From Leifsonia xyli (GTDB lineage Bacteria; Actinomycetota; Actinomycetes; Actinomycetales; Microbacteriaceae), in the NCBI GenBank assembly GCA_001647635.1, contig CP014761.1:1426001-1490000 (forward strand): a stretch of DNA of 64,000 nt, given 5' to 3'. Of this stretch, positions 61,357 through 63,706 are shown one piece after another. How positions within the stretch are numbered: the first letter of the stretch is position 1; each line of letters begins with the position of its first letter. Under the pieces are notes generated by a model. That model searched no databases, was not told the origin of the DNA, and saw only the letters and a list, made by a program, of their open reading frames with translations. The translations under genes were made by a program, and so were the position numbers.

Positions 61357-62015
61357 TTAGGCCCCCTTCACTGCGTTGCGGACGAAAACGATGCGGCCAC
61401 GAGCACCGGGAACGGCGCCCTTGACCAGCAGCAGGCCCTTCTCGGCGTCGATGCCCTGCACCTTGAGGTTCAGGACGGTGACGCGCTCGCCACCCATGCG
61501 ACCGGCCATGCGCATGCCCTTGAAGACACGGCTCGGGGTCGAGGAGGCGCCGATGGAACCCGGCTTGCGGTGGTTGCGGTGCGCACCGTGCGAAGCGGAG
61601 ACGCCCTGGAAGTTGTGGCGCTTCATCACACCGGCGAAGCCCTTGCCCTTCGAGGTGCCGACGACGTCGACCAGCTGGCCGACCTCGAAGGTCCCGTCGA
61701 CGGTGAGCTCCTGGCCGGCCGCGTACTCGGCGGCGTCCGCGGTGCGGACCTCGGTCAGGTGACGGCGCGGCGTGACGCCCGCCTTGTCGAAGTGACCGGC
61801 GGCCGGCTTGTTGACCTTGCGCGGGTCGATCTGGCCGTAGGCGATCTGGACGGCGTTGTAGCCGTCGGCCTCGGGGTGCGGACCTGGGTCACGACGTTCG
61901 GCGTGATCTCGATGACGGTCACGGGGATGAGCTTGTTGTTCTCGTCCCAGACCTGGGTCATGCCGAGCTTCTTGCCGAGGAGGCCCTTGGAGGTCTTGGT
62001 CTCGATGTTGGACAT
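61357..62015 (-). pseudogene. rplC: 50S ribosomal protein L3 with apparent single-base frameshift
   Basis: The N-terminal frame ([23 protein letters not shown]...VVTQVRTP) breaks at about residue 48; the C-terminal frame holds the rest, including [46 protein letters not shown] and the tail [13 protein letters not shown]. One extra base in the G4 run at 61873-61876 (C on the coding strand) restores [17 protein letters not shown] and 219 residues, the normal length. L3 is essential, so a sequence error is most likely. Confidence 0.93.
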
Positions 62016-62029
62016 GGTGGCACTCCCCC

Positions 62030-62338
62030 TTAGAGCTTGATCTCGATGTTGACGTCCGCCGGCAGGTCGAGACGCATGAGCGAGTCGACGGCCTTCGGGG
62101 TCGGGTCGATGATGTCGATCAGCCGCTTGTGCGTGCGCATCTCGAAGTGCTCGCGGCTGTCCTTGTACTTGTGGGGCGAACGGATCACGACGACCACGTT
62201 CTTCTCGGTGGGAAGGGGCACCGGGCCGACGACGGTCGCGCCGGCACGGGTCACCGTGTCGACGATCTTGCGCGCCGAGGTGTCGATGACCTCGTGGTCA
62301 TACGACTTAAGCCGGATGCGGATCTTCTGTCCCGCCAT
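62030..62338 (-). CDS. rpsJ: 30S ribosomal protein S10
   Basis: 102 residues: [76 protein letters not shown], complete NusE. It is the first gene of the S10 operon; the promoter must lie in the 417-bp gap before it. Confidence 0.98.
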
Positions 62339-62707
62339 GTCTGACTCTCTCTCTTGTTATGGCGTCGTACGAGACGGCTCTCTCGAGTCGTTCTTCGCAT
62401 TGGACGCGGTGCGACGTACGCGTGGGGAACGCCACTATTCTTCTGTCAACTCGTTTTCGAACCTGTTGCAGGCACAGAGTTAGCCCCTGGCCTCTTGGGT
62501 GTTCGAATTGAGCGTGTCCTGCTGCCTGCGGCCTAACCTCATATTGCCAAAACCGCGGAAAAACACGGTGCAACGGGCTATGCACTGCCTGGCAGTGATC
62601 CGGTCTGAGCGCGCACCTGCGCACACGTCCCGAAATGTTGAACTAGACAAGTTTGCCAGATCGCGGCCGATGCTGCAACCCGGGCGTGTCGCGACCGAGC
62701 ACTGGGC
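62339..62707. other. S10-operon leader / promoter region, no gene seen
   Basis: Upstream of rpsJ on the minus strand. It is more AT-rich than its neighbours. One exact -35-like hexamer TTGACA is at 62444-62449 (minus) but no convincing -10 follows at 16-19 nt. TTCGAA occurs twice (near 62457 and 62502). No ORF with codon bias and no tRNA is seen. A 15-nt sequence at 62620-62634 resembles an arm of the 66-bp repeats nearby. Confidence 0.45.
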
Positions 62708-62773
62708 GTCTGCGGTAGTTAGTAACGACTGCGTCGGGTCGATCCTCCGCAGTCGTTACACGGTACCGCAGTC
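62708..62773. repeat. 66-bp palindromic element, copy 1
   Basis: Inverted repeat with two 26-bp arms (62708-62733 and 62748-62773) around a 14-bp spacer. The inner 12 bp of each arm (GTAACGACTGCG and its complement) pair perfectly, 21 of 26 arm positions overall. The right arm includes the last codons and TAA of the decayed AbiEi/DUF559-like gene. A related copy with identical arm length and spacing lies at 63641-63706. Confidence 0.75.
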
Positions 62774-63550
62774 ATCCCAACGCAGCCTGGGATCTGACGA
62801 CAATCCGGCCGCGATGAGTGCGTCGACGAGCTGCCCCGGCACCTGGACAGCGGGCCACCTCCAGCGCACGACCCTCCATCCAAGAGCGCGGAGTCGGTCC
62901 TCGCGGATCTTCTCGTCCAGCACCACACGATCCGCCGACCTGCCGCCGCGCAGAGCCGTGTCGAGGTACTTCGCGTCACCATCCGCTTCGCCGATGATCC
63001 GCTCGTGCCCGACGGTGTCCTCGCATCGGTTGCGCCGTCAGCCAGGCCGCGAGAAGTGCCCCCTGCCCGACCTCTCGGACCACGTGATCCGCGACCGCGA
63101 CTGCATCGGCTGTCGTAGATGAGGCGGCGAGGTCGACAACGGTGCGTGCTGCGCTGGTGCACCGTAGCCCGTCCATTTCGACGATGTCCGCGTCGGGCAC
63201 GTGCAGGGAGTGCACCCTCACTCCTTTCACAGATCGGCCGCCAGTCGTGCGCCCGACGGCGACGTGGATGTCGTCCCCGCGTTCCGCGGCGAAGGCAGCC
63301 CGTGCAGAAGTGCCGCCGACCAATGGGAGAAGACGGGTGGTGTCGTGCGCGTGCGAGCATACGCGCTGAGCCTCACCACGAGCTGGTCGCGGCGACCGAG
63401 CGCATCCCATTCGACCCGGCTCACGTACGCGCCGCGCCCGACGCGCACTTCGTCGCCGCGTCGTGCTGCCCGCGCGTGCTGCTGACGGGTTTCCCCGTAG
63501 CCGCGGAGGTGGCGGACGAGAACGGCGGGCGGGAGGGAGTCGGAAGCCAT
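62756..63550 (-). pseudogene. Decayed AbiEi-antitoxin-like / DUF559 endonuclease-like protein
   Basis: Begins ATG 63550 with an AbiEi-like N-terminal domain (HLRGYGETRQQHARAARRGDEVRVGRGAYVSRVEWDALG, then HWSAALLHGLP). The frame shifts near residue 92: an extra base in the C4 run at 63275-63278 restores AGDDIHVAVGRTTGG. It continues through TSAARTVVDLAA to GHRRARADH, where a second break and apparent loss of about 40 residues removes the nuclease core. The final frame holds ERIIGEADGDAKYLD and EDRLRALGWRVVRWRW, the end of a DUF559/PD-(D/E)XK fold, stopping at TAA 62756-62758. Unlike the surrounding genes it is not housekeeping; likely horizontally acquired. Confidence 0.75.
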
Positions 63551-63640
63551 GCTCCCGGTCTAGGCGTGGAGGCCGCATCGTTGGATGCATCTGGCGGATT
63601 CTGTGGATAGTCCGCGAAAAGCGCCGGACGGGGTGAACGC

Positions 63641-63706
63641 GTCTGCGGTGGTTCGGAACGTGCGCGGCTGCGCGCGCAGGCGCAGACGTTACGAAGGACC
63701 GCGGAC
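63641..63706. repeat. 66-bp palindromic element, copy 2
   Basis: Arms 63641-63666 and 63681-63706, 14-bp spacer, 20 of 26 arm positions paired. Left arm begins GTCTGCGGT as in copy 1, and the right arm begins CGCAG(A)CGTTAC. The shared geometry and about three-quarters sequence identity in the arms show it is the same element family, flanking the decayed gene on its 5' side. Confidence 0.75.

What the first reader, a model, noticed from the sequence alone, without database searches (positions are those of the whole stretch)
62708..63706. Pair of 66-bp palindromic elements flanking a decayed gene
Two elements have identical geometry: 26-bp arms and 14-bp spacer, at 62708-62773 and 63641-63706, with related arms starting GTCTGCGGT and ending in its near-complement. 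They bracket a broken AbiEi/DUF559-like gene between the S10 operon and (probably) tuf. They look like a REP/MITE-like intergenic family, or the ends of a small mobile unit, not described in any family I recognise. A 13-of-15 partial arm at 62620-62634 may be a third, degenerate relic.
Basis: seen in the sequence. Interest (0 to 1): 0.7.

Follow-up and report, generated by a model that had tools for sequence, protein, structure and literature searches.

The report
Nuclease gene with its own palindromes
Two 66-letter DNA palindromes bracket the remains of a nuclease-like gene; in related bacteria the intact gene is bracketed the same way and lone copies of its palindrome are scattered through the genome, which looks like an undescribed kind of spreading DNA element.

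Summary
The two 66-bp palindromes are real and belong to a dispersed, gap-free family (72 distinct Leifsonia copies). They are the ends of a unit: in relatives an AbiEi-like protein with a Vsr/DUF559-like nuclease motif lies between them at tuf-rpsJ. The window's gene has lost part of the catalytic region. In Microbacteriaceae a matched palindrome pair flanks 43 of 70 such genes, against 0 of 76 shifted controls. Sequences differ by lineage, but the plan is constant: an 8-mer repeated exactly 19 bp apart in each arm (66 of 84; shuffled 1 of 84). Outside the family 15 of 27 loci have matched pairs. Solo copies go with the gene in Leifsonia and, with another motif, in a second genus. They favour convergent 3' ends; orthologous empty sites exist. 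No Y1 transposase was found in 28 Leifsonia genomes, so this is not REP/RAYT, though organised like it. Best reading: the nuclease recognises and disperses its palindrome, REPIN-fashion. The association is shown; binding, cleavage and dispersal are inferred. My searches found no description.

The parts
63641..63706 (.). 66-bp palindrome B, on the upstream (5') side of the broken gene
   Evidence: 20 of 26 Watson-Crick pairs; R1 74.4 bits
62708..62773 (.). 66-bp palindrome A, on the downstream (3') side; the last reading frame of the gene ends inside it (stop at 62756-62758, minus strand)
   Evidence: 21 of 26 pairs; R1 71.7 bits; ORF end; in 5 of 7 intact Leifsonia relatives the stop also lies inside the 3' element
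62765..63538 (-). Remains of the AbiEi-like / Vsr-DUF559-like nuclease gene, in two frames, lacking the part that matches residues 195-248 of the G023 protein
   Evidence: ungapped tblastn pieces at 63538-63293, 63293-63075, 63056-63006 and 63001-62765
62030..62338 (-). rpsJ (ribosomal protein S10), right-hand neighbour of the unit in transcription direction
   Evidence: 102-aa ORF; homologue found in 26 of 28 genus genomes

Best explanation
A gene-plus-palindrome system that works like REPIN/RAYT but with an unrelated enzyme. A protein with an AbiEi-like N-terminal half and a Vsr/DUF559-like PD-(D/E)XK nuclease half recognises its own 66-bp palindrome: four copies of a short motif, two direct copies 19 bp apart in each of two inverted arms. 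The gene sits between two such palindromes. Further copies spread through the genome as non-autonomous elements, mostly just past stop codons and often between convergent genes, without target-site duplication. Protein and palindrome diverge together, so lineages have private sequences on a constant frame. In the window's species the gene is dead and the palindromes remain as fossils. Shown: the pair around the gene, the dispersed copies, the constant plan, empty sites and the preference for 3' ends. Inferred: that the protein binds the palindrome, that it cuts DNA, and that cutting drives dispersal, perhaps through a hairpin or repair intermediate.
For: Matched pair at 43 of 70 genes against 0 of 76 shifted boxes and a mean of 0.35 when upstream and downstream flanks of different loci are paired; 15 of 27 outside the family, 0 when re-paired. 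Motif repeat at exactly 19 bp in 66 of 84 flanking palindromes, 1 of 84 shuffled, 9 of 331 other palindromes. Conserved nuclease-like residues. All 9 gene-bearing Leifsonia genomes carry the family, 10 of 11 without the gene at tuf-rpsJ do not. Second motif type: 48, 70 and 50 both-strand matches in the three genomes whose gene-flanking palindromes made the model, 6 and 4 in two congeners. Empty sites. Convergent placement 28 of 66 intergenic copies. AbiEi proteins bind pairs of 23-bp inverted repeats spaced 3 or 13 bp (PMC7319586, passages).
Against: No binding, cleavage or movement has been shown. 27 of 70 family loci lack a matched pair at my threshold. Amplification is not universal: one type has 3 places in its genome, two of them at the gene. 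G010 has R1 matches without the gene at tuf-rpsJ, and some R1-positive genomes in the family have no high-scoring homologue, for example G081. Two protein pairs at 60-80% identity have unlike palindromes (mean 0.49). The gene changed only 3 times on the genus tree, too few for a test. The 19-bp repeat is weak outside the family (7 of 32).
Confidence: 0.6

Rival explanations
1. Operators: the protein is an AbiEi-type repressor and the palindromes are its binding sites, for autoregulation at the gene and perhaps for a regulon elsewhere; no mobility is involved.
For: AbiEi and Rv2827c autoregulate by binding pairs of 23-bp inverted repeats in their promoters (PMC7319586, passages), close to the 26-14-26 frame; one palindrome usually lies 100-250 bp upstream of the gene.
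Against: The second palindrome lies at the 3' end. Solo copies favour convergent gaps (28 of 66) and avoid divergent ones (5 of 66). The nuclease-like half is conserved.
Confidence: 0.2
2. Host-useful hairpins: bidirectional terminators or mRNA-stabilising 3' hairpins kept for that role, with the gene a chance neighbour.
For: 3'-end placement and paired changes inside copies.
Against: The same hairpin also stands upstream of the gene, its sequence is private to each gene lineage, and the pair is absent from shifted positions; terminators need no conserved motif 19 bp apart.
Confidence: 0.08
3. Defence or addiction: the palindromes mark self DNA or hold the nuclease in check, and loss of copies or of the gene harms the cell.
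For: AbiEi-like half (PADLOC models) and nuclease-like half.
Against: In the window the gene is broken and the copies persist. No partner toxin gene lies between the palindromes in the Leifsonia units that I read.
Confidence: 0.08
4. Ordinary MITE moved by a DDE transposase encoded elsewhere.
For: Short dispersed inverted-repeat elements with empty sites.
Against: No target-site duplications at 43 units (observed equals shuffled for k 4-7). The matched pair follows the AbiEi/DUF559-like gene in many lineages. I did not search systematically for a transposon with these ends.
Confidence: 0.03

Closest known systems
REP/REPIN elements with RAYT (REPtrons)
   Same: Single gene flanked by two cognate palindromes, many extragenic solo copies, palindromicity kept by paired changes, coevolution of gene and repeat, no target duplication seen here (PMC2817692 passages and one section, PMC3733652 passages, PMC3116915 outline and Discussion).
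   Different: No Y1/HUH transposase in 28 Leifsonia genomes; protein is AbiEi-like plus PD-(D/E)XK-like; one fixed 66-bp two-arm unit with a 19-bp internal repeat; no GTAG/GTGG head.
AbiE type IV toxin-antitoxin operators (AbiEi, Rv2827c)
   Same: AbiEi-like protein beside long inverted repeats of similar size and spacing (PMC7319586, passages; PADLOC hits).
   Different: Nuclease-like C-terminal half, no toxin gene between the palindromes in the Leifsonia units read, second palindrome at the 3' end, dispersed copies.
MITEs
   Same: Short, dispersed, non-coding inverted-repeat elements with empty sites.
   Different: No target-site duplication at the units and a constant association with one gene family.

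Membership tests
REP/REPIN-RAYT | Y1 (HUH, PF01797) RAYT transposase in the genome | tested here: not met
   0 of 28 genus genomes; the same search rings in 5 of 14 control genomes. Not tested in other genera.
REP/REPIN-RAYT | GT(A/G)G head at one end of the palindrome | tested here: not met
   Consensus of 72 copies begins GACTGCGGT and ends in its complement; no such head at either end (head as described).
REP/REPIN-RAYT | Gene flanked by two copies of the repeat | tested here: met
   43 of 70 loci against 0 of 76 shifted.
REP/REPIN-RAYT | Many extragenic copies | tested here: met
   Up to 130 both-strand matches in a Leifsonia genome and 70 in a second genus; 1 of 68 copies inside a predicted gene. 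Only 3 places in G106.
AbiE type IV toxin-antitoxin | AbiEi-like domain | tested here: met
   PADLOC AbiEi E 1.4e-11 and 1.6e-13 for two proteins; Pfam AbiEi_4 in 8 of 27.
AbiE type IV toxin-antitoxin | Adjacent AbiEii (DUF1814) toxin gene | tested here: inconclusive
   Between the palindromes of the Leifsonia units I saw one gene only, by reading ORFs; neighbours elsewhere were not scanned for DUF1814.
DUF559/Vsr-like nuclease | PD-(D/E)XK-type catalytic residues | tested here: met
   E202, E245, D247, K251 invariant and D234 in at least 90% of 27 proteins; that this is the Vsr/DUF559 pattern is my reading from recall.
DUF559/Vsr-like nuclease | Match to the Pfam model | tested here: inconclusive
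   No DUF559 match in the Leifsonia proteins or the 27 members of A3; a Tsukamurella homologue passes the cut-off (23.8 against 20.6 bits).
MITE | Target-site duplication | tested here: not met
   43 units, shared k-mers outside the ends no more than shuffled; none seen by eye at the aligned empty sites of solo copies.

The most novel reading that the evidence does not exclude
A class of mobile DNA that is widespread in Actinomycetota: an AbiEi-like DNA-binding domain joined to a Vsr/DUF559-like nuclease acts as the dispersal enzyme of a private 66-bp palindrome. It would be an independent invention of the REPIN/RAYT way of life, built on a restriction-type nuclease instead of a tyrosine transposase, and would give genes now annotated as AbiEi or DUF559 a DNA partner and a role.
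Probability: 0.5. Interest if true: 0.95.

Novelty: new variant of a known kind. Interest (0 to 1): 0.85.

Why it matters
Homologues of this gene are common (194 of 299 Microbacteriaceae genomes at E 1e-20), and relatives are annotated only as 'AbiEi antitoxin domain' or 'DUF559'. To my knowledge they have no assigned role. Linking them to cognate palindromes turns an unknown gene family and an unexplained class of intergenic repeats into one testable system. If the nuclease disperses the palindromes, REP-like biology arose twice from unrelated enzymes. The many natural protein-palindrome pairs would also be a data set for how DNA specificity evolves.

Tried and rejected
Rfam: only 3 weak chance hits, all below gathering scores. 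Y1 transposase as the mover: 0 of 28. Third relic arm: no model match. Target duplications: none. Pfam and NCBIfam on two Leifsonia proteins: nothing credible; PDB by sequence: nothing. The first tree was invalid because rows of both strands were mixed; one search replaces it. The first palindrome scans used only even loop lengths and missed pairs such as L136-L138 (40 both-sided, control 3 of 76); one search replaces them for the pair counts. One search failed to find the L3 query; one search replaces it. That solo copies sit beside such nuclease genes in general: rejected, most do not. Integron attC-like sites were set aside from memory only, not tested. Literature: searches gave listings in which I saw no paper on palindromes paired with AbiEi/DUF559 genes; long lists were shown only in part, and the library lacks most subscription journals. 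Structure prediction was not used: loci from the genome search are not among the sources that tool names, and I found no intact homologue in the window.

Rows dropped or limits: 8 of 28 genus genomes were not examined at tuf-rpsJ (20 fetched), among them G013, which is R1-positive. In G006, G003 and G027 tuf was not found in the fetched stretch; I count them as gene-less there. Of the matches the 70 best-ranked listed loci were analysed: 30 given by the tool, then the next 40 in rank order. R1 scored at most 150 candidates per genome and 16, and a palindromic copy usually scores on both strands, so match counts are about twice the copy number and are lower bounds. In one search gene calls are my own heuristic, and copies at orthologous sites in G016 and G025 are counted apart, so its p-values are too small. 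In one search, 42 of 43 paired loci had a usable protein. For the phylum 30 loci, one per genome, were tested; L195, L200 and L216 belong to the window's own family and are left out of the 15 of 27. The R2 model was built from three of the genomes in which it then found most copies; whether G300 and G261 hold the cognate gene was not examined.

Full report
OBSERVATION. Each has 26-bp arms and a 14-bp spacer, with 21 and 20 Watson-Crick pairs; that geometry with 20 or more pairs never arose in 200 shuffles of the region. A covariance model R1 built from 20 copies, these two included, finds only these two in the window above noise (74.4 and 71.7 bits, next 15.6). The proposed third relic arm is not supported.

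A DISPERSED FAMILY. The arm pattern with up to 3 mismatches has 10 hits in the window's own genome and none for the reversed control pattern. In 28 genus genomes it has hits in 6, and the control has 1 hit in all; the single hit in G007 is not an element. One exact pattern hit in a named collection is in Leifsonia sp. CL147, so I take the genus to be Leifsonia (Microbacteriaceae). R1 matches 11 of 28 genus genomes, with 6 to 130 both-strand matches, and none in 17. In an even sample of the family it matches 36 of 299 genomes in 19 of 85 genera. 72 distinct Leifsonia copies align over 66 columns without a gap. Changes on both sides of a pair number 160 cells against a shuffled mean of 86.6, and no shuffle reaches that or the covariation score; relatedness can inflate such numbers, but sliding the partner by 1-3 columns destroys the signal.

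THE PAIR BRACKETS A GENE. Of 20 genus genomes fetched at tuf-rpsJ, 9 have an AbiEi-like gene there, intact or broken. Strong elements stand on both sides in G000, G023, G009, G016 and G025; weaker ones on both sides in G001, G002 and G015; only one weak upstream one in G018. All 9 carry the R1 family; of the 11 without the gene there, 10 have no R1 match and G010 has 6 (Fisher 1.2e-4). On an S10-L3-L4 tree the gene changes 3 times and R1 4 times; in the 2 independent pairs on well-supported branches R1 goes the same way 1.8 times on average, too few for a test. In 5 of 7 intact relatives the stop codon lies inside the 3' element, in G023 the element starts 38 bp later, and G018 has none. In G019 and G020 the site holds neither gene nor elements; homology to the gene-bearing genomes ends within about 15 bp of the tuf-side element and resumes 15 to 60 bp past the other one in the two cases that I measured (G000, G023), with about 220 bp of unrelated sequence between.

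THE PROTEIN. Seven intact Leifsonia proteins and 27 diverse ones share an AbiEi-like N-terminal half (PADLOC AbiEi; Pfam AbiEi_4 in 8 of 27) and a C-terminal half with invariant E202, E245, D247, K251 and Y252 and D234 in at least 90%. I read this, from recall, as Vsr/DUF559-like PD-(D/E)XK. A Tsukamurella homologue (28% identical to the G023 protein) passes Pfam's DUF559 cut-off and matches a restriction-endonuclease model below its cut-off. In the window the gene is in two frames and lacks what matches residues 195-248 of the G023 protein, where two of the conserved acidic residues lie. The rplC gene in the same window also has a frameshift; as rplC is essential, single frameshifts here may be sequencing errors. 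The missing 54 codons are harder to explain that way.

A GENERAL RULE. I took the 70 best-ranked homologue loci of Microbacteriaceae without choosing. Strong palindromes (22 or more of 26 pairs) pile up at the gene ends: 23 within 200 bp upstream, 8 at 200-400 bp, 3 just overlapping the gene end and 27 within 200 bp downstream; other 200-bp bins hold 0-3. A matched pair (arms of at least 20 of 26, both within 450 bp, at least 60% identical to each other) flanks 43 of 70 genes. 12 more have unlike palindromes on both sides, 14 on one side, 1 none. Moving the gene box by 2 kb gives 0 matched pairs of 76; pairing upstream and downstream flanks of different loci gives 0.35 on average, at most 2. 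Identity within a locus averages 0.76 (42 loci), between loci 0.43, at most 0.90. In spite of unlike sequences each arm repeats an 8-mer at an offset of exactly 19 bp: 6.14 of 8 matches on average against 2.0-3.5 at offsets 12-24, and at least 6 of 8 in 66 of 84 flanking palindromes, 1 of 84 shuffled and 9 of 331 other palindromes of the same loci. Four locus pairs with proteins over 80% identical have palindromes 0.87 identical on average; two pairs at 60-80% have 0.49; below 50% the mean is 0.44-0.50. So specificity is shared by close homologues and drifts fast.

BEYOND THE FAMILY. In an even sample of Actinomycetota 42 of 296 genomes have a homologue at 1e-20. 16 of 30 loci have a matched pair; without the 3 loci of the window's own family it is 15 of 27, and 0 when re-paired between loci. 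The 19-bp repeat is weak there (7 of 32). Two Tsukamurella genes annotated DUF559 and AbiEi have like palindromes on both sides too, the second with arms of only 19 of 26.

DISPERSAL GOES WITH THE GENE. Reading together by eye: of the 24 genomes with the best homologues (263 bits or more), 19 are R1-positive, against 17 of the other 275. As a second case, model R2 was built from five palindromes that flank another gene in genus g77. It has 48, 70 and 50 both-strand matches in G103, G165 and G216, the source genomes of those five; 6 and 4 in the congeners G300 and G261; 0 in G106 and G022; and 3 in G023, where the listed place is also an R1 element. A third type stands at only 3 places in G106, two of them at the gene, and not in three congeners. 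So amplification occurs in more than one lineage but is not universal.

WHERE COPIES SIT. In 195-200 kb of four Leifsonia genomes, 7 of 7 copies of G016 have an orthologous copy in G025, and several sites are empty elsewhere, for example 14-17 bp in G022 and G009 where G016 has the element. Copies often begin a few bases after a stop codon. Of 68 copies 28 lie between convergent genes, 33 between tandem genes, 5 between divergent ones, 1 inside a gene and 1 at a stretch edge. Convergent gaps hold 11% of intergenic bases (p 3e-11) and 14% of gene pairs (p 1e-8); copies at orthologous sites are counted apart, so these values are too small. No target duplication is seen at the units or by eye at the solo sites.

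MECHANISM. AbiEi proteins bind pairs of 23-bp inverted repeats spaced 3 or 13 bp (PMC7319586, passages), close to the 26-14-26 frame, so binding by the AbiEi-like half is a natural inference. The nuclease-like half, copies in trans, joint divergence and 3'-end placement resemble what is described for RAYT and REPIN (PMC2817692 passages and one section; PMC3733652 passages; PMC3116915 outline and Discussion). But no Y1 enzyme occurs in 28 Leifsonia genomes and the REP head is absent. I therefore propose a REPIN-like system driven by an unrelated nuclease. Binding, cleavage and movement are untested. The operator reading is the strongest rival and may also hold for the upstream copy.

NOVELTY. 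My paper searches listed no account of it; they cover an open-licence library only. By organisation it is a variant of the REP/RAYT kind; by enzyme it is not a member. Whether it deserves a class of its own depends on the bench tests.

Noticed in passing
window 61872-61875: rplC (ribosomal protein L3) is split by a frameshift; as the gene is essential this suggests an indel error in the sequence, so single frameshifts in this window should be read with care.
   Followed up: partly
L104, 3636-3765: In G023 the stop codon of the nuclease gene is followed by several tandem repeats of a half-arm unit of about 19 bp before the full palindrome.
   Followed up: no
G023 C15:20333-20729, C27:129510-129966, C17:11236-11621: Clusters of two or three elements at spacings of about 130-230 bp, like BIME arrays of REPs.
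   Followed up: no
L132, 1131-1364 and 2477-2710: Two palindromes on each side of the nuclease gene instead of one.
   Followed up: no
L102-L121, upstream of rpsJ: The tuf-rpsJ interval holds different genes in different Leifsonia species: the nuclease unit, long repeat-rich surface-type proteins or others; in G006, G003 and G027, where tuf was not reached, glycosyltransferase-like genes and in G003 an IS30-like transposase lie upstream of rpsJ (names by eye).
   Followed up: no
L218, L219, L221, L223: Four species of one unnamed genus (code g91, 5-6 Mb genomes) each have a matched palindrome pair around a homologue, with several further homologues listed per genome.
   Followed up: no
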